DNA from: Planctomycetota bacterium
Lineage (GTDB): Bacteria > Planctomycetota > Phycisphaerae > UBA1845
Length of the DNA stretch: 59,452 nucleotides
Direction of reading: 5' to 3'
Assembly: GCA_030616775.1 (NCBI GenBank)
Contig: JAUWWQ010000025.1
Span: 1 to 59,452, forward strand
Shown: piece after piece, positions 275-8,477 of the stretch
Numbering within the stretch: position 1 is the first letter of the stretch
Layout of the letters: each line of letters opens with the position of its first letter
Notes under the pieces: generated by a model
Told to the model about the DNA's origin: nothing
The model's input: the letters and a program-made list of their open reading frames with translations, nothing else
Database searches by the model: none
Made by a program: the position numbers and the translations under genes

Positions 275-1012
275 TCAAGGATCAATAAGATCAGCGACTA
301 CGCTCAGCGAGCTGCTGATCTGGGTGTAGATGCCCAACTCGCCCGCGCCGAACCCGCGGAATGCAACGTCCCCGCCGTCCAGCGACACAGCATCGAAGAA
401 GGAAAACGTGCCGCTTCCACCGGGAATTGTTGTGCCGCGATCTGCGACGACATTCAATGTTCCGCCAATGTCCGTATAGACGCCACTCTGGCTGGACGCG
501 CCGGAGCCGACGAATGCCACGTTTCCACCGTCGATTGACGGCTCATTGGTGTCGAAGTCCGTAAAGTTGCCGGTGCCACCCGGGATGGCGGTGCCAGTGT
601 CGGCCACGACGCCAAGCACACCACCGATACGGGCGTAGACACCGACCTCGGTGCTGCCGGCTCCGCGAAAGGCGACGTCCGTTCCGGAAAGCGATGCGTT
701 GCTGAAGGAGATGAAGTTTTCGGTTCCTCCGGGGATGGACGTACTCGTGTCGGCTATGACGCTAAGCACTGCGGAAACGTCAAGGTATATACCCGAGTCA
801 TCTGCAGAATCTGTGCCAAGAAACGCGACGTTGGCTCCGCTGAGCGAGGGCGTCTTCCCGAACCCCGAGAACGTGCCGGTACCGCCGGGAACTGACGTAT
901 CAGTGTCGGTGATCTTGCGGAAAGTTACGACCTGACCGGGGGCCGTGTCCCCGGCCAGAAGAATTCCGCCCATGATGATAACGACCGTCTTGTATAGATT
1001 GTGTCTTCGCAT
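275..1012 (-). CDS. secreted DUF7453-like tandem-repeat protein, probably 3'-truncated
   Basis: A 245-residue protein with an N-terminal signal peptide (hydrophobic VVIIMGGILLAG) and about four tandem repeats of roughly 48-50 residues. Each has the pattern VADTxTxIPGGTGxF, then SLxGxxVAFxG, then GxYxxIGGxLxV. I recall this architecture as the DUF7453 or choice-of-anchor NxxG repeat type of planctomycetes and cyanobacteria, in which strand-rich repeats form a propeller-like secreted domain of unknown role. A strong AAGGAGGT lies at 1019-1026, seven bases upstream of the ATG. The last repeat breaks off after VVAD and the reading frame ends in LIDP, just before the IS630-type transposase. No C-terminal anchor is present, so this looks like a truncated gene. 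Confidence 0.7.
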   Translation of the reverse strand: MRRHNLYKTVVIIMGGILLAGDTAPGQVVTFRKITDTDTSVPGGTGTFSGFGKTPSLSGANVAFLGTDSADDSGIYLDVSAVLSVIADTSTSIPGGTENFISFSNASLSGTDVAFRGAGSTEVGVYARIGGVLGVVADTGTAIPGGTGNFTDFDTNEPSIDGGNVAFVGSGASSQSGVYTDIGGTLNVVADRGTTIPGGSGTFSFFDAVSLDGGDVAFRGFGAGELGIYTQISSSLSVVADLIDP

Positions 1013-1696
1013 CTCGAGACCTCCTTATGTCAAAACATGACCTTCTTACCCGACGGGATAGAAGCGATATAGAGCAGGCAGAAGGGCGTCTCAGTCGGCG
1101 TCAGGATGACATCGCCCGGAACCACTTCCATCCTCCGCTGATCAACAGAAACGAGTCTCTCGGACGGGGAACGCCGTAAGACGGCGATTCCTTAGACCCA
1201 CCTCGTTGTACGTGCCCTTAGTCTACCGCAAAGGCCGATCAATTGCAACGGGAAATGGAGTGAAAACGGGGGAACCAAGCCTGTTTTCTTAACTAGTGTG
1301 CTTCCACCGAGTGCCGTGTGGCCGTGCCTCGGGCCACACGGGTGGTGGCTCCCGGTCTTCCTCGTGACGCTACACAAAGGAGGCAATCGCAGGTCGGAGA
1401 AGAACGTGCGCGCCAAAAAGCCCTCAAAAGCATCGTCAACCTCTACGGCGCCTGGGGCAAGCCCGACAAGGCGGCTACGTACCGGGCGATGCTGCCGGCC
1501 GCGGGGGCGGCCGCACCCGCGGGTCCGTGAGTCGCCGGGGCACCTGCTCCAGGCAATTCGCCTTTACAGTTAAGGCGTTTGACTTTGGGAGCGGGCGTCG
1601 ATTACACTGCAAGCTGGTGAAGAGGCTCTGAGGCGGGTTGGCGAGTGCGCCAACAGGCTTGTGGCAGTGTGTTCATTTTCCAGGAGGGCTGTTGCC
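1013..1696. other. intergenic region with decayed gene tail
   Basis: No intact gene is seen. The region carries the promoter side of two divergent genes and, at 1301-1521, copy A of a repeat that encodes the end of a TPR-type protein (see the repeat entries). Confidence 0.5.
1301..1521 (+). repeat. direct repeat copy A: decayed 3' end of a TPR-protein gene
   Basis: About 220 bases that recur with strong similarity at 4554-4773, same orientation, on the other side of the metalloprotease gene. One frame reads KALKSIVNLYGAWGKPDKAA and YRAMLP, followed by an alanine-rich tail and a stop at 1528-1530. LxLYxAWGKPxKAAxYRxxLP is the usual ending of planctomycete TPR proteins and TPR serine/threonine kinases, so I infer this is the tail of such a gene with the rest lost. 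Confidence 0.65.
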
Positions 1697-4447
1697 ATGT
1701 CACGCTATACGAAAAACTGTGGGCGGCCGGGACGTATTATCACCGTGGTTTTATGCGTCGCGGCGCTATCGGCCGGCGGTGCCCAGAAGACCTTTGGGGC
1801 ACCGGCCTTCGGCGAAGTGTTCACCTTGCGGCAGCCGGATGATACGCACATCAACGTCCGCATCTGGGGCGATGAGTTCTACGGCGTAACCGAATCGCTC
1901 GACGGCTATACGCTTGTGCGCGACCCGAAAACCCAGGCATTTTGCTACGCGCGACTCTCCGCCGATGGGAATGAACTGCTTTCAACCGGGGTGCCGGTCG
2001 GCTCGACCCTGCCGGCGGGGCTCAACCTGAAGCAGCACATCCGCATCAATCGCGCCTCGGCCAGGGCGAAGATTGCTGCGGCCCGCGCTCGTTTCGCCAA
2101 AGGCAGTGCAGAGATACTGGCAACCCTTGGACGCGGACCTCGACTCGATCCGCCGAACAACGGATTGGTCAAGGGCATTACGCTTCTTGTAGACTTCTCG
2201 GATGATCCGGGTACGATCTTGCCCTCGGAGGTTGACAGTTACTGCAACCAAGTCGGCTATAACGGTAACGGCAACAACGGTTCGATTCGTGATTACTTCT
2301 ACGACGTTTCCGACGGGAATCTTACTTACACCAATTTTGTACCCACCGCCTACTACCGCGCCGTGCACCCAAAGACCTATTACGAGGACCCTCTGATAGA
2401 GTACGGCATCCGGGCTCGGGAGCTCATAATCGAAGCCCTGACCGACCTGGAAAACAACGACTTCGATTTCAGTCAATATGACTCCAACAGCGACGGCCTG
2501 ATCGACGGGGTCAACTGTTTCTATGCGGGATACACTAATAATAACTGGGCCGAGGGGCTCTGGCCCCATTCCTGGACGATCTCGTTCAGTGCTGACGGCG
2601 TCTCCACCTACAAGTACCAGATTACCGACATGGGCGACAGTCTGCTGCTGGGGACCTTCTGCCACGAAAACGGGCACATGATCTGCTACTGGCCGGACCT
2701 GTATGATTACGGTTATGAGTCTGCCGGGGTGGGCCGGTTCTGCCTGATGTGTTCCTCTGGTCCCGGAACCAATCCGGTCGAGCCGTGTGCATACTTGAAA
2801 TACATTGCGGGCTGGTCCACAACCACTGTTTTGACGACCCCGCAGGCAGGCCTGACCGTGCCGTCGGGTGTCAACACTTCATACAAGTTCGAACACCCCC
2901 TCAACCCCAACGAGTATTACATGATTGAGAACCGCCAGCGGGCCGGCCGAGACAGTTCCATTCCCGACGTCGGACTGGCCATCTGGCACATCGACACGGA
3001 AGGCAGCAACGGTAACGAGCAAATGACACACCAGTTGCACTACGAAGCGACCCTCGTACAGGCTGACGGAAACTGGGATCTCGAATACCGCAACAATTAC
3101 GGTGATTCCACCGATCTTTGGAAGGACCCTGCGTACACTGAGTGCCGCCCGTATACCCATCCCAACACGGACTGGTGGGACGGCAGCGGGTCGCATTTGT
3201 CAATTGGCAGCATCAGTCCGTCGGCCCCGACCATGACTTTCGACTTCGATATCCTCGTGGACTGCAACAGCAACGCGGTCCCCGACAGCCAGGACATCTC
3301 TATGAGCACCAGCGAGGATTGTAACAGCAACGTCGTTCCCGACGAATGCGATCTGAGAACGTCGTTTGTCTCCCAGTCGGGCGACCTTTCGCCAATCGGA
3401 TACGGATCGCCTCAAAGTTATACGGTCGTTTCACCGCCGCCGGGACTGCGGCACGTCACGCTCTACTTCGAGACCTTCGGCGATTTCAACGGCCCGGATC
3501 GAAGTCTAGACGTGGACATCAACGGCACGCCGGTCGGCAGCGTGTTCCAGACCGGCGCCGTCGGATGTCCATACACGCTCGATCGCGATGGCATTGTAGT
3601 GCCGTGTGGCGCCTTCAACGCCGCTGTTGCGGGCGGCGACGCCGTCATCAACATGGTGGCAACCAGCAACGTCGATCCCTACGCGTGCGACTCCTATATC
3701 CGCATGACCGTCAGATACACGGCTGTGGGCGCCAGTTGCAACGGGAACGGGATACCAGATGACTGTGACATCGCAACCGAGACCAGCGACGACTGCAACA
3801 CCAACGCCGTTCCCGACGATTGCGACACCACCGGTGGCGGCACACTATTGGACGAGGATTTCGAAAGCGGCCTGCCAACCGGCTGGTCCGTCACCGGAGG
3901 GTTCCAGATCACCGGCCAATGCGGCGCCGCCCACTCCTATTGCGGCGGAAGCTTGTGGGCCTACGCCGGCGACACCACAACCTGTACCTACGGCGACTAC
4001 GAGTTTCGTGAACTGATCGCTCCACCGGTCACCCTCGGGTATGGGCTCTCCGAGCTGCGCTTCTGCTCGCGTATCGAGACCGAGGCGGACTGGGACCTCG
4101 GGAAGGTACGGGTCAACGACACGCCGGTCTGGGAAGACAGCGGAGGGACGGGTGTGTGGCAGCAGCAGGTCGTCGACCTGCGCGCCTTCGCCGGGCAGAC
4201 CGTCACCATCACCTTCGAATTCACCAGCGACTCAAACACGAGCGGCTGGCTCGGATGGCAGGTGGACAACGTCTATGTCGTCTCCGGATCGCCGGATGAG
4301 GATGGCGACGGCGTCCCCGACGAGTGCCAAGCGGTAATCCCGACCCTCTCCGAATGGGGCATGCTTGCCATGGGCCTTCTGCTGATCGCCGCAGGCACGT
4401 TGGTGCTTGCCCAACGTCACACCTCCGCAAACACCCGAGTCAACTGA
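1697..4447 (+). CDS. secreted M6-family metalloprotease with calcium-type repeats and IPTL-CTERM tail
   Basis: 916 residues from the ATG at 1697. I chose this over an in-frame ATG 36 bases upstream because AGGAGG sits at 1682-1687 directly before it and it opens a typical signal peptide (IITVVLCVAALSAGG). A zinc-protease motif HENGH is at residues 323-327, followed by YWPDLYDYG, as in M6 (immune-inhibitor-A-like) peptidases. After the catalytic part come DCNSNAVPD, DCNSNVVPDECD, CNGNGIPDDCD and DCNTNAVPDDCD calcium-binding-type repeats, a jelly-roll-like domain starting DEDFESGLPTGW, and a last DEDGDGVPDECQ repeat. The C-terminus is IPTLSEWGMLAMGLLLIAAG then a basic tail, the IPTL-CTERM sorting signal. 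Likely exported, then processed at the envelope. Substrate unknown. Confidence 0.85.
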   Translation: MSRYTKNCGRPGRIITVVLCVAALSAGGAQKTFGAPAFGEVFTLRQPDDTHINVRIWGDEFYGVTESLDGYTLVRDPKTQAFCYARLSADGNELLSTGVPVGSTLPAGLNLKQHIRINRASARAKIAAARARFAKGSAEILATLGRGPRLDPPNNGLVKGITLLVDFSDDPGTILPSEVDSYCNQVGYNGNGNNGSIRDYFYDVSDGNLTYTNFVPTAYYRAVHPKTYYEDPLIEYGIRARELIIEALTDLENNDFDFSQYDSNSDGLIDGVNCFYAGYTNNNWAEGLWPHSWTISFSADGVSTYKYQITDMGDSLLLGTFCHENGHMICYWPDLYDYGYESAGVGRFCLMCSSGPGTNPVEPCAYLKYIAGWSTTTVLTTPQAGLTVPSGVNTSYKFEHPLNPNEYYMIENRQRAGRDSSIPDVGLAIWHIDTEGSNGNEQMTHQLHYEATLVQADGNWDLEYRNNYGDSTDLWKDPAYTECRPYTHPNTDWWDGSGSHLSIGSISPSAPTMTFDFDILVDCNSNAVPDSQDISMSTSEDCNSNVVPDECDLRTSFVSQSGDLSPIGYGSPQSYTVVSPPPGLRHVTLYFETFGDFNGPDRSLDVDINGTPVGSVFQTGAVGCPYTLDRDGIVVPCGAFNAAVAGGDAVINMVATSNVDPYACDSYIRMTVRYTAVGASCNGNGIPDDCDIATETSDDCNTNAVPDDCDTTGGGTLLDEDFESGLPTGWSVTGGFQITGQCGAAHSYCGGSLWAYAGDTTTCTYGDYEFRELIAPPVTLGYGLSELRFCSRIETEADWDLGKVRVNDTPVWEDSGGTGVWQQQVVDLRAFAGQTVTITFEFTSDSNTSGWLGWQVDNVYVVSGSPDEDGDGVPDECQAVIPTLSEWGMLAMGLLLIAAGTLVLAQRHTSANTRVN

Positions 4448-4553: not shown

Positions 4554-4773
4554 CTTCTGCCGAGTGTCGTGTGGCCGTACCTCGGGTCGCTCGGGTAATG
4601 ACGCCTAGTCTTCCTTATCACCCTACACAACGGGGCAATCGCAGGTCGGAGAACAACGTGCGCGCCAAAAAGCCCTCAAAAGCATCGTCAACCTCTACGG
4701 CGCCTGGGGCAGGCCTCCCAAGGCGGCTGGGTACCGGGCGGTGCTGCCGGCCGCGGGGCCGGCCGCACCCGCG
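4554..4773 (+). repeat. direct repeat copy B: decayed 3' end of a TPR-protein gene
   Basis: Second copy of the 1301-1521 unit. The TPR-like frame is still open here (KALKSIVNLYGAWGRPPKAA, YRAVLP), so both copies keep the coding phase over this stretch although neither has a gene body. The copies bracket the metalloprotease gene as direct repeats about 3.25 kb apart. Confidence 0.65.
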
Positions 4774-4801
4774 CACGCTAACATAACGAGTCGTACAAAC
4801 A

Positions 4802-6946
4802 TCAGGGGATCGGGTCAGCGCATTGGGGCGGCTCGGCCAAGATCTCTCTGATCAAATCGGCCTGGGCTTGAATCACCAACTCATCTTCTACTGCCTGTCG
4901 CAGGATGATCTGGCGCGTGTTCTGCGTGGTTGCCCATACCTCGGCCAGGTCCAGGCCCCGGGCCTCGACAATCTGGCAGAATGTCTGTCCACCGGCAACG
5001 GTAGCCGTCAGCTCCTCAACACTAATTCCCAAGGTGGCGGCCGCTACCTTGGTAAAGGTTTCGGTAATCTGCTCCTGGTTCGCATGTAAGGCCTGCAAAT
5101 CGAAAGTCCCGCAGGTGTCACAAGGCTCCGCCCCGTCATTTGTTATAGTTGCGTAGGACTCATCTTCACACCAGGCGTTCCAGTTGCTCTGCTCTTGCTC
5201 TGTGATGTCCGCCCACTGGTCTTTGTCGCAACCGTCGATCTTGCACGATGCGAAACACCAATCTTCCTCGCCGTTCGAGCCGACTGGTGGTACTAGCGTG
5301 GGGTGCGTGCCGGACGCTGTCATTTCTCTATGTTTCCAGCAAATCCCGAGCAGATAGAAGCTACAGCCTTTGACGGGCGGGCCCCAAACCCAGCGTTCAG
5401 TTGCCCCGGGGGGAAGATCCGCACTTTCTGCCGCCATCCAGGATTCCCCTTCCCCCCTCAGACTCACCAGGTTCGCGTCTGTGAACCACCAATCGTCTCT
5501 ACTCGCGGGGTCCCTGCGATCATTAAAATATCCGCAAGCCAGCGAAAAGCCAGGGATATAGCGTCGCGTTTCGGAATCGAAGTAGGTGCCATGGCTGAAC
5601 CTGCCCACGTACACCACGGGGCGCTGTGCTTCGAGTGCGTACCCGCCGAATTCAGTCTCAACGCCGCCCACCGAGCTCCACCGCGTGTAATAACCATAGT
5701 GCTGAAAATAACTGACTGCTTCGATTGTCGATCTGTCCGGGCTTGTGGTAATCATAACATGTTCCCAGTCGCCAACATGCTCACCGTTACTCACTGGACG
5801 ATCCGTGAACAGCCGGGCTAACTCATACTTCATGCTCCACTCGCACGGAAACTGGTATCCGTAGTACCGAAAGTACTTGATCCGAAGCGCTCCTGTTTCC
5901 TTGTTATTCATGACCTTGAAGTATGTCGGAACGTTGGGGCCCCCTTGTGGCCCATTGGTACCCCACGACCAATCCGGACCCAGTACCGGATCCTCGAAAT
6001 CCTCTACGTCCATCATAGCCTCTGCGGACGAAGATTCCTCAGGCAGCCTGCCATATGGCGGAGGGTTGCCCCACACTTCTCTGTCATTAGGAAACCGATA
6101 GTCGTGGGAATCCGAATCCCAGTCGGCGCATCGGTCGTAACGATACTCGCCGTCTTCGAATGGAGGTCCTCCCTGCTTGCCGCACAGCATTCGGTCAAAC
6201 CATCTCTGTGCTGACATGGGTAACTGCCATACGTCGCGATCGAACCTCACGACGGGAGCAAATTGCTCCACACTCTCCCGTGCGGTAAACTCGAGGTATT
6301 CCTCCGGTGGATAAGCGTTGGCGCGCAAGATTCGCTCAGCCAGAATGACATCGTCAACTTCGTAGACCAGTGCTAACACATCGTACGCTTCCTTTGCGCT
6401 ACAGCCGGCATTCTTCAGGGTTTCCACTACGCGCCACTCATCCTGGTCGAAGACATGCTTCAGCACTAGACCGATCCTAACCGCGGAGAACCCGGCATCC
6501 TTCAGAATCCGGGCCACACCCTGGGCATCCTGGGCAAATGCATCGCCCAGCGCCCGCCCAACCTCAACGGAAGAATAGCCAATCTCTTTCAGGATTTGGG
6601 CGATTTGTGCTGCGTCTACTGAGAGTACGTCTCGCATCGCCTTGGCAATTACGACCGGCTCATATTCTTCATCGGACAATATCCGTGCCGTTTCTAGTGC
6701 ACCTAGGCCAAACTCATCTCTCAACACCTCAGCAACTTCTGCGGCCGAGTAACCCTGCTGGTGTAGCGCCCGGGCTCGTATCACAGGGTGCTTCGCGATG
6801 TAACGTTCGCGCGATCGATGACGCGTCGTTTCCTGAGGCGATCGATCAACAGCGGACAGCCGCGTCGTGGCGCTGACGGCGATCAGCGCGGCCACGGCCC
6901 AGAACGTCAGGTTCAGAAAGCTTCGCGTTTCTTCTCTACGTACCAT
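4802..6946 (-). CDS. secreted VPS62/DUF946-like protein with N-terminal helical repeats
   Basis: 714 residues. ATG at 6944-6946 is preceded by GGAGGAGGT. A signal anchor (FWAVAALIAVSATTRLSA) is followed, at about residues 55-215, by five or so helical units of 30-34 residues with the pattern ARxLKDAGFSAxxVGxALxxxFxxD. The middle (about 225-520) has GDWEHVMI, SYFQHYGYYTRW, RPVVYVGRFSHGTYF and WWFTDAN, resembling the vacuolar-sorting-protein-62 (DUF946) fold known from fungi and some bacteria. The tail has paired cysteines (CFASCKIDGC, CDTCGTF) and a helix pair with LGISVEELTATVAGGQTFCQ, like small DUF2680-type domains. The function is unknown. The repeat domain is the unusual part. I see no enzyme motif. 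Confidence 0.6.
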   Translation of the reverse strand: MVRREETRSFLNLTFWAVAALIAVSATTRLSAVDRSPQETTRHRSRERYIAKHPVIRARALHQQGYSAAEVAEVLRDEFGLGALETARILSDEEYEPVVIAKAMRDVLSVDAAQIAQILKEIGYSSVEVGRALGDAFAQDAQGVARILKDAGFSAVRIGLVLKHVFDQDEWRVVETLKNAGCSAKEAYDVLALVYEVDDVILAERILRANAYPPEEYLEFTARESVEQFAPVVRFDRDVWQLPMSAQRWFDRMLCGKQGGPPFEDGEYRYDRCADWDSDSHDYRFPNDREVWGNPPPYGRLPEESSSAEAMMDVEDFEDPVLGPDWSWGTNGPQGGPNVPTYFKVMNNKETGALRIKYFRYYGYQFPCEWSMKYELARLFTDRPVSNGEHVGDWEHVMITTSPDRSTIEAVSYFQHYGYYTRWSSVGGVETEFGGYALEAQRPVVYVGRFSHGTYFDSETRRYIPGFSLACGYFNDRRDPASRDDWWFTDANLVSLRGEGESWMAAESADLPPGATERWVWGPPVKGCSFYLLGICWKHREMTASGTHPTLVPPVGSNGEEDWCFASCKIDGCDKDQWADITEQEQSNWNAWCEDESYATITNDGAEPCDTCGTFDLQALHANQEQITETFTKVAAATLGISVEELTATVAGGQTFCQIVEARGLDLAEVWATTQNTRQIILRQAVEDELVIQAQADLIREILAEPPQCADPIP

Positions 6947-7334
6947 TTCTTAACCTCCTCCGCCTTCTCCGCAAGGTAATACTCGCAAAGAGTCTGTTTA
7001 CCCGTGTACTGCTCAACGCCCGTGCCGGCAACGTGACATCGCCCGCCCTGCGTCCGAGAATGATCTACTCTACACCCTCTCAGACTCTCTTCGAGACTGC
7101 TTTCTCGCTCGCGGGTGACCTCCAGAACTCGTGCTACTCACGATTTCCCATCTCGCGCCTCCGTGACCGCCATTCTATAGGTTTAACCCACTCCCCTGCA
7201 AGCGAAGAGCGGGATCCCGCCCGCCATCCCTGAGTCGACGGTTGCCTTGGACCTGGGCTTGGATGACACCGTCTCCTAAACGCAGTGTGCATACCGCCCA
7301 ACCAGCACGTGGCCCGCTTCGTCGCAGACGCGGT
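6947..7334. other. intergenic region
   Basis: No gene is supported. A perfect 12-base palindrome GCGGGATCCCGC lies at 7209-7220. Otherwise nothing is recognised. Confidence 0.4.
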
Positions 7335-8477
7335 CTATTCCTGTAGCGAACGGCCCAGTGCCATCAGGCCGAAGGCGACGCCGTACGGCCGATCGTAGCG
7401 GTGCATGTCGTAATCCCATACGGAGCCGTTCTTCTGCTGGATGTTCATGATCTCACGTTGCAGCTTAGCCCAATAGACTGGCTGATTCGCAGGGGGGAGT
7501 CGCTCGATCACAAGTGCCGCGTAGTAGTGGCCGAACAAGTAGAAGTAGCCCGAGTTGTAATAGAAGGCCTCATGAGGAACCGGTTTGTGCATGGCAATCT
7601 CGAGGAATCTGTGGTCCCGGAAGAAGTGGGCCAAGCCGAACAAGCGGTCCTCAAGCGGGACCTCCTCCCCGGCAAGCAACAACGCCGCCTGGCACACCTG
7701 AATCCGCGATAGCGAGCCCTTCACCTGATCGATGTACTCAGGATGTAGGTTCGGGATCGTACGCACCCGATAGGTGTATGCGCCGTTGGGCAGGCGACAG
7801 CGGTGGATCACACGGACCGCCCGGTCGATCACCTTCCGATCAACGTCGAATCCCTGGTGTTTGGCGGTTTCCAGCGCAACGACGGCAGCGGCGGTCATGA
7901 AGCTGGTCGCCCATTGTGGCCGACGCGTCCGCGGTACATCAAACTCGAGGTATCCCCATCCACCGTTGATCGATTGCGACCGCGCAAGGTCGTCCAGGTA
8001 CTCTGGCACAGCGTGGCCTATTTCGGCCCGGAGCGGCGAGTCAGCGTAGCGGGAGTGTCCGTAAGCGGTGGCAAGTCCTTGGAGCCCGTAGATGTATGCC
8101 CAGTTGTTCATGGTGTCCCATTCATTGGGACGTTTCACGTCGGCGTTGTCGATCAGGTACGTCAGAGCGTGGTCAGCGGCTGCGCCGGCCGCATCTGAGG
8201 TTCCCACTTCGAGCAAGGCCGCGCAGCATAGCCCGGTCGTCGCCACCTTCCATGCGCGGTGGGTCTCGGGATTGGACCACATCTCCCCGCTCCAGGTCGT
8301 GATCGAGTCCTGAGGTCCGCCCCACGAGCCGTTCTTGTTTTGATCCTTAACGAGAAAGTCGATCCCCTGCTCGATGGCGGCACGAACCTGCTGGGATGTA
8401 AACCGGTCAGCCTGGTCGATGCCAGAGGCAGAGCCGAGGCAGACTGCCAGCCCGAAGACTGCCGTGACCACGTTCAT
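7335..8477 (-). CDS. secreted prenyltransferase/squalene-oxidase-repeat (alpha/alpha toroid) protein
   Basis: 380 residues. ATG at 8475-8477 with AAGGAG eight bases upstream. A short signal peptide (VVTAVFGLAVCLGSASG) precedes toroid repeats with QNKNGSWGG, SQSINGGWGYLEF, CRLPNGAYTYRVR and QQKNGSVWDYD, the QW-type motifs of terpenoid-cyclase toroids. The catalytic DxDD of squalene-hopene cyclases is absent and the protein is exported, so it is unlikely to be a terpene cyclase. Such exported toroids are common in planctomycetes and their role is unknown. It lies 23 bases downstream of the coiled-coil lipoprotein gene on the same strand, so the two are probably co-transcribed. Confidence 0.75.
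   Translation of the reverse strand: MNVVTAVFGLAVCLGSASGIDQADRFTSQQVRAAIEQGIDFLVKDQNKNGSWGGPQDSITTWSGEMWSNPETHRAWKVATTGLCCAALLEVGTSDAAGAAADHALTYLIDNADVKRPNEWDTMNNWAYIYGLQGLATAYGHSRYADSPLRAEIGHAVPEYLDDLARSQSINGGWGYLEFDVPRTRRPQWATSFMTAAAVVALETAKHQGFDVDRKVIDRAVRVIHRCRLPNGAYTYRVRTIPNLHPEYIDQVKGSLSRIQVCQAALLLAGEEVPLEDRLFGLAHFFRDHRFLEIAMHKPVPHEAFYYNSGYFYLFGHYYAALVIERLPPANQPVYWAKLQREIMNIQQKNGSVWDYDMHRYDRPYGVAFGLMALGRSLQE

What the first reader, a model, noticed from the sequence alone, without database searches (positions are those of the whole stretch)
4802..6946. VPS62-like protein preceded by novel helical repeats
The N-terminal 160 residues contain about five units of 30-34 residues with a clear pattern (RILKDAGFSA, VGxAL, FxxDA) not obviously TPR, HEAT or ankyrin, fused to a DUF946/VPS62-like beta domain and a Cys-rich tail in an exported protein.
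Basis: partly seen in the sequence, partly recalled or inferred. Interest (0 to 1): 0.5.

Follow-up and report, generated by a model that had tools for sequence, protein, structure and literature searches.

The report
Unnamed 29-residue helical repeat, exported protein
This apparently exported bacterial protein carries a rod-like stack of helix pairs built from an exact 29-residue repeat for which no fitting family model was found, and the same repeat turns up in scattered bacteria of four named phyla, often in proteins that look exported or surface-bound.

Summary
The ORF at 4802-6946 (minus strand, 714 aa) has a signal-like N-terminus, five clear repeats plus a degenerate sixth hairpin, a Vps62-like domain, a Cys cluster and a tail. 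The repeat is exactly 29 residues, not 30-34. The same repeat occurs in Deinococcus, Hymenobacter, Herpetosiphon and Sporosarcina and, degenerate, in giant proteins of one family of Sporosarcina's class. Against Sporosarcina, unit 1 aligns to unit 1 over 146 residues without a gap, 34% identity, E 7e-25. AlphaFold2 gives six two-helix hairpins (pLDDT 92). No Pfam or NCBIfam model fits the window's array; a short UBA_DHX29 match passes its cut-off in the two Deinococcus proteins. No PDB chain reached Foldseek E 0.001. In the phylum sample only the window's genome has the repeat (1 of 392). A congeneric homologue lacks 73 residues, about 2.5 units. Best reading: an undescribed family of alpha-alpha solenoid used as an extracellular scaffold for a Vps62 domain with conserved H-x-G-D-W-E and second-His motifs. 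The fold is a confident prediction; the function is inferred.

The parts
4802..6946 (-). whole ORF, 714 aa (P0001)
6851..6946 (-). signal-peptide-like N-terminus, residues 1-32 (hydrophobic core, then LSA)
   Evidence: read from the sequence; no predictor run
6764..6790 (-). N-cap of the array, residues 53-61 (HPVIRARAL); shared with the two Deinococcus proteins and Sporosarcina, similar (NPIIRARQL) in L071
6350..6784 (-). five 29-residue two-helix repeats, residues 55-199
6263..6349 (-). sixth, degenerate helical hairpin, residues 200-228
   Evidence: helices 149-158 and 163-177 of the model; not scored as a unit
6518..6736 (-). residues 71-143 (73 aa, about 2.5 units) absent from the congeneric homologue in G002
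5267..6274 (-). Vps62-like domain, about residues 225-560 (outer limits set by eye)
   Evidence: alignment with other Vps62 proteins
5519..5788 (-). core of the Pfam Vps62 match, residues 387-476
5759..5779 (-). H-x-G-D-W-E-H motif, residues 390-396
5588..5596 (-). second conserved His (SHG), residues 451-453
5168..5257 (-). conserved Cys cluster C564, C568, C573, C593
4829..5089 (-). C-terminal, possibly helical tail, residues 620-706
   Evidence: low-confidence model only; best Pfam match E 0.15, below cut-off

Best explanation
An exported protein of two main modules. The first is an alpha-alpha solenoid of an undescribed 29-residue repeat family (consensus xAxAxILKxxG[FY]xAxx[IV]AxALKxV[FY]xLxA). 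I think it works as a stiff, length-variable extracellular scaffold that displays the second module and binds a partner along its surface. The second is the C-terminal part of the Vps62 domain, whose conserved H-x-G-D-W-E and second-His motifs suggest a metal-assisted binding site for a surface ligand (glycan or lipid). Shown: the repeat, its exact period, its recurrence in other phyla, the Vps62 relationship, the conserved motifs. Predicted: the hairpin fold. Inferred: export, scaffold function, metal and ligand binding.
For: Period 29 far beyond shuffles. Similar arrays found by tblastn in 4 plasmid records at E 4e-10 to 2e-7 and in Sporosarcina at 34% identity without gaps. Steps between scanned units are 29 throughout in 7 of 12 proteins; exceptions: P0003 15 of 16 steps, L010b 6 of 7, L071 9 of 13 (three are 28), and the degenerate L073 (2 of 6) and L072 (3 of 11). 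Model pLDDT 92.2, pTM 0.84, 12 helices. Some carriers look exported: a lipoprotein-like start in P0003, a signal-like start in L071 and in the G002 homologue, SLH domains in L073 (E 6.7e-33). Length changes: 73 aa missing in G002; six Sporosarcina units average 91% identity in DNA, so probably multiplied recently. H-x-[GA]-D-W-E and the second His are present in all 13 rows of the alignment, that is own, G002 and 11 of 13 other matched proteins. In two of six other Vps62 proteins scanned the domain is paired with other repeat modules, Tectonin and SBBP beta-propeller repeats.
Against: No experiment and no solved homologue. The solenoid model rests on 4 alignment rows, three of them from one Sporosarcina locus, with the N-cap misaligned. 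Several carriers show no obvious signal peptide as read: Hymenobacter, Herpetosiphon, Sporosarcina, D. taeanensis and D. sp. QL22, so the repeat need not always be extracellular. UBA_DHX29, a UBA-like model, passes its cut-off in both Deinococcus proteins (36.4 and 52.3 against 27 bits). The Vps62 part could not be modelled (pLDDT 38), and the window protein alone is borderline for the family. The NPP1 likeness is weak (E 0.029 and 0.06, in 2 of 7 proteins scanned) and not seen for the window protein itself. No conserved gene neighbourhood gives a function.
Confidence: 0.55

Rival explanations
1. The array is a string of small helix-turn-helix or UBA-like units that bind DNA or another macromolecule one unit at a time, rather than a continuous solenoid.
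For: UBA_DHX29 passes its cut-off in P0002 (36.4 bits) and P0003 (52.3 bits, E 4.9e-14; best stretch 30 residues) against 27; RuvA_C passes in L073; weak HTH_38, RecX, HTH_7 and UBA matches.
Against: UBA_DHX29 was not listed for the window protein, Hymenobacter or Herpetosiphon; the best stretches are 15-40 residues and the scores sum over many units; steps are mostly exactly 29 with no linkers; the model is one confident domain.
Confidence: 0.1
2. The protein is mainly a secreted binding or membrane-acting protein of a Vps62/NPP1-like kind, and the array is only a passive spacer.
For: Vps62 motifs kept in all 13 aligned rows; weak NPP1 matches over the same motif; the array is shortened by 73 aa in a congeneric homologue whose residues 141-710 equivalent stays 65% identical.
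Against: NPP1 scores are below its cut-off (14.9 and 13.9 against 21 bits); array sequence and N-cap are conserved with Sporosarcina, more than a pure spacer would seem to need.
Confidence: 0.25
3. The arrays are amphipathic, low-complexity helices that arose separately and resemble each other by composition (as the DotG/IcmE decapeptide repeats do).
For: Ala/Leu/Gly-rich units; similarity of the profile to DotG (E 1.2e-6) and of the window's array to Pfam Decapeptide (E 4.1e-5, below cut-off); one low-complexity false hit in G702.
Against: Here the period is 29 with fixed L7, G11, F/Y12, L21 and F/Y25, where a decapeptide repeat has 10 (by its name); unit-1-to-unit-1 alignment with a shared N-cap; shuffled proteins give 0 to 0.1 units on average.
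Confidence: 0.08

Closest known systems
Alpha-alpha solenoid repeats in general (TPR, HEAT, ARM, clathrin heavy chain repeat, designed helical repeats)
   Same: Two helices per unit in tandem. Best structural rows: designed proteins 8cws and 8cwy (Z 7.3), designed helical repeats 7udk (6.2) and DHR4 5cwb (6.0), clathrin heavy chain 9r9b (Z 5.5 over 83 residues); 5ods_C (Z 6.6, same residue range) is clathrin too by my recall.
   Different: Unit of exactly 29 with its own consensus; no TPR, HEAT, ARM or ankyrin model listed; the structural scores lie in the range the tool calls common for helical repeats.
Vps62, Pfam PF06101
   Same: The G002 homologue passes the cut-off (28.8 against 22.1 bits); FAP, KYxxYY/EYWxFY-type, H-x-G-D-W-E and second-His motifs align.
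   Different: Only a C-terminal part of the model matches (365-446 of 541); a helical array precedes it; there are insertions relative to the other proteins.
UBA_DHX29, Pfam PF24899
   Same: Passes its cut-off in the two Deinococcus proteins.
   Different: Not listed for the window protein; 23-30 residue stretches of a 55-position model; no tandem array implied by the model.
NPP1, Pfam PF05630
   Same: Weak overlap at the H-x-G-D-W-E motif in the homologue and L039.
   Different: Below the curated cut-off; homology not established.
DotG/IcmE decapeptide repeats, Pfam PF25296
   Same: LKDAGFSA-like phrases.
   Different: Score 23.8 against a cut-off of 45; period 29 here.

Membership tests
Alpha-alpha solenoid (structural kind) | tandem two-helix units packed into one elongated domain | tested here: met
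   12 helices in 6 hairpins, pLDDT 92.2; a prediction, coordinates not inspected
TPR, HEAT, ARM or ankyrin repeats | sequence match to the family's Pfam model | tested here: not met
   none listed for the array with E up to 10 allowed, nor for P0002-P0005 with E up to 1; HMMER filters may drop weak matches
TPR, HEAT, ARM, clathrin or other solved solenoid | fold match well above the background of helical repeats | tested here: inconclusive
   Foldseek: 0 matches at E <= 0.001, best 2.8e-3 with TM 0.15; VIA-align Z at most 7.3
Vps62 (PF06101), window protein alone | score over the curated cut-off of 22.1 bits | tested here: inconclusive
   20.3, 21.7 for the domain, 21.6 and marked over as 22.1 with neighbours
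Vps62 (PF06101), congeneric homologue | score over the curated cut-off of 22.1 bits | tested here: met
   28.8 bits
Vps62 (PF06101) | motifs shared with other matched proteins (H-x-G-D-W-E, second His) | tested here: met
   13 of 13 rows
Beta-tripod (part of the old Vps62 model) | D-X-G-S/T-G-X3-D signature (PMC8624791, passage) | not tested
   match covers model positions 365-446 only; signature not searched
UBA_DHX29 (PF24899), window protein | score over the curated cut-off of 27 bits | tested here: not met
   not listed for the window protein; met in P0002 and P0003
NPP1 (PF05630) | score over the curated cut-off of 21 bits | tested here: not met
   not listed for the window protein; 14.9 in the homologue, 13.9 in L039
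Decapeptide repeats (PF25296) | score over the curated cut-off of 45 bits | tested here: not met
   16.2 bits whole protein, 23.8 for the array

The most novel reading that the evidence does not exclude
A solenoid whose true module is a single helix of 14-15 residues: helices A and B of each unit are related and interchangeable, so arrays grow and shrink by half units and can flip their faces. It spreads between phyla, partly on plasmids, as a scaffold fused to very different domains.
Probability: 0.3. Interest if true: 0.6.

Novelty: new variant of a known kind. Interest (0 to 1): 0.45.

Why it matters
A repeat of almost fixed length with natural arrays of up to 17 units is useful for studying how solenoids evolve and as a template for repeat-protein design. 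A family model would give a name to 'hypothetical proteins' in several phyla, including giant proteins in one family of Sporosarcina's class, and would make the half-unit question directly testable.

Tried and rejected
Structure of the Vps62 part: residues 201-714 folded without relatives, pLDDT 38, discarded. Phage relatives: no tblastn match for the window protein or for the D. peraridilitoris protein; viral-contig scans gave pattern matches but no confirmed relative or no pattern match. The Vps62 part on plasmids: no match at E 0.1. Foldseek against viral models: no match at E <= 0.001. PHROGs: none for P0001, only weak matches for the others. Gene neighbourhood: of seven window ORFs compared with 19.5 kb around the G002 gene only P0001 matches. 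A resemblance of the tail to DUF2680 came to mind (recalled); Pfam did not list it, so it is not claimed. G702 matches were dropped as low complexity after reading one of the two places. No TPR, HEAT or other family stood out in the VIA list; families not listed there are not excluded. Literature: searches listed no title that I recognised as describing this repeat (two found no paper); I saw listings only, so a description under other words, or in papers not held, could exist. For Vps62, searches were listings, and I saw passages of two papers.

Full report
What is there. The ORF at 4802-6946 on the minus strand encodes 714 aa. Residues 1-32 look like a signal peptide (no predictor run). Residues 55-199 are five units of exactly 29 residues; a sixth, degenerate hairpin runs to about 228 in the model. 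From about 225 a Vps62-like domain follows, then a conserved Cys cluster and a tail.

Is the repeat more than chance. Sliding residues 55-215 against themselves without gaps gives 177 at offset 29 and 101 at offset 58. Over 1000 shuffles the best score at any offset from 10 to 79 was 48; over 1000 shuffles that keep hydrophobic and polar positions it was 74. The five units are on average 30% identical in protein and 44% in DNA, and Tandem Repeats Finder reports no such array at 4700-7000, so the array looks old.

Where else it occurs. tblastn of the protein against 72,556 plasmid records matched 4: two Deinococcus, one Hymenobacter, one Herpetosiphon. With the D. peraridilitoris protein as query 6 records matched, the two extra being plasmids of Deinococcus sp. 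QL22. A position-specific scan gave 16 and 17 units in the two Deinococcus proteins, 10 in Hymenobacter and 8 in a row in Herpetosiphon (the first scan, counted one isolated, probably false unit there). Of the 12 proteins, 7 have steps of 29 only; P0003 has 15 of 16, L010b 6 of 7, L071 9 of 13 (three of 28), and the large degenerate L073 and L072 have 2 of 6 and 3 of 11. Shuffled proteins gave 0 to 0.1 hits on average.

The genome-contig scan returned one confirmed relative out of 71 pattern matches, Sporosarcina globispora; the two peptide patterns used were narrow, so this says little about true frequency. Its first units align to the window's without a gap over 146 residues, 34% identity, E 7e-25 for the single comparison. 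The phrase PV[IV]RA[RH] that opens the array is shared with both Deinococcus proteins. In the class of that genome 3 of 299 genomes matched: Sporosarcina itself, G747, and G702, which is low complexity. In the family of G747, 16 of 148 genomes matched. Most open frames there are about 1,960-4,830 aa; the one I scanned, L073, has SLH domains. L071 (577 aa) has 14 units behind a signal-like start and a small N-terminal domain that resembles that of Sporosarcina (E 2e-7); the Deinococcus one is less surely similar (E 0.001). The Hymenobacter and Herpetosiphon carriers share a different, large N-terminal module (E 3e-86).

Distribution near the window. The repeat profile matches 1 of 392 genomes of the phylum, the window's own, whose sequence is in the profile, and 2 of 51 of the family: own and G002 of the same genus. 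The full protein matched 2 of 60 (own and G002); G001, of the same genus but 76% complete, had none. The C-terminal 484 aa matched 1 of 392, own. The gene is therefore rare and sporadic.

Half-unit changes. The G002 homologue (650 aa, 63% identity) lacks residues 71-143, 73 aa or about 2.5 units, in frame. One step between units is 44 in P0003 and one is 45 in L071, about 1.5 units. Comparing the unit profile with itself, offsets 14 and 15 score best (79.4), above the 99th percentile (78.5) but below the maximum (81.5) of 2000 column permutations; helix periodicity alone may add to this. The half-unit idea is suggestive, not proven.

Structure. With a 4-row alignment AlphaFold2 gives pLDDT 92.2 and pTM 0.84 for residues 52-232, with 12 helices. 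Foldseek found no PDB or viral match at E <= 0.001; the best PDB one was a designed helical repeat, E 2.8e-3 with TM 0.15. VIA-align's best were designed proteins (Z 7.3), with clathrin heavy chain 9r9b at Z 5.5, in the range the tool calls common for helical repeats. By sequence the best PDB relative of the profile was DotG/IcmE (E 1.2e-6), then a designed nanocage component (E 1e-4).

Family models. For the window's array no Pfam model passes its cut-off and NCBIfam lists none. Above-cut-off but short matches occur in other carriers: UBA_DHX29 in P0002 and P0003, RuvA_C in L073 and SCGB3A in L071. The UBA_DHX29 match (52.3 bits in P0003) is the strongest result against calling the repeat wholly unlike described families; it is not listed for the window, Hymenobacter or Herpetosiphon arrays.

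The Vps62 part. PF06101 matches residues 387-476 at 20.3 bits and 21.7 for the domain alone, just under the cut-off of 22.1; the homologue scores 28.8. In the phylum sample 13 of 392 genomes have a match at E <= 0.001, own included. In an alignment of 13 rows (own, G002 and 11 of the 13 other matched proteins) H-x-[GA]-D-W-E and a later His are kept in all; those others were found with the family model, so this is expected of them, but the window protein keeps the motifs too. Of 7 Vps62 proteins scanned (6 of the 13 others, and G002's), one has Tectonin repeats, one SBBP propeller repeats, and two show weak NPP1 matches over the same motif. Passages of PMC8624791 and PMC7613979 say that Vps62 matches in some other proteins are better described as a beta-tripod domain; the window protein matches a C-terminal part of the model, and I did not test for the tripod signature.

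How it probably works. I propose an extracellular scaffold (array) presenting a ligand-binding Vps62 module. The scaffold idea rests on the predicted solenoid, the length variation and the company the repeat keeps in some carriers (SLH, lipoprotein-like starts). The binding idea rests on conserved motifs and on fusion of Vps62 with Tectonin and propeller repeats (lectin-like by recall). Both functions are inference. Five carriers read here show no obvious signal peptide, which speaks against a purely extracellular role.

What is new. The general fold kind is known. What I could not find described is this 29-residue family; the literature searches were by phrase, listings only.

Noticed in passing
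window 1661-4447 (+): Large protein with an HENGH (HExxH-type) motif and an IPTL-CTERM motif over its Pfam cut-off; looks like an exported metalloprotease.
   Followed up: partly
window 275-1012 (-): DUF7453 protein (E 1.3e-17).
   Followed up: no
window 7335-8477 (-): Protein with a weak squalene-hopene cyclase C-terminal match (below cut-off).
   Followed up: no
L007:2140-5643 and L008:2458-6150: Hymenobacter and Herpetosiphon plasmid proteins share a large module (E 3e-86 over 522 aligned positions and E 4e-25 over 168) without a Pfam match at or over cut-off, in front of the 29-residue arrays.
   Followed up: partly
L072, L073 and other genomes of the G747 family: Giant proteins of about 1,960-4,830 aa with degenerate copies of the repeat; L073 carries SLH domains.
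   Followed up: partly
ends of P0002, P0003, the second L010 ORF and the L037 protein: Four arrays end in a short hydrophobic stretch with two Cys, the last one at the C-terminus (read by eye).
   Followed up: no
L010:8400-8921: Six Sporosarcina units are on average 91% identical in DNA, a recently multiplied array; the locus also holds unknown bases.
   Followed up: partly
L039, L040: Vps62 domains of the same phylum fused to Tectonin and to SBBP beta-propeller repeats.
   Followed up: no
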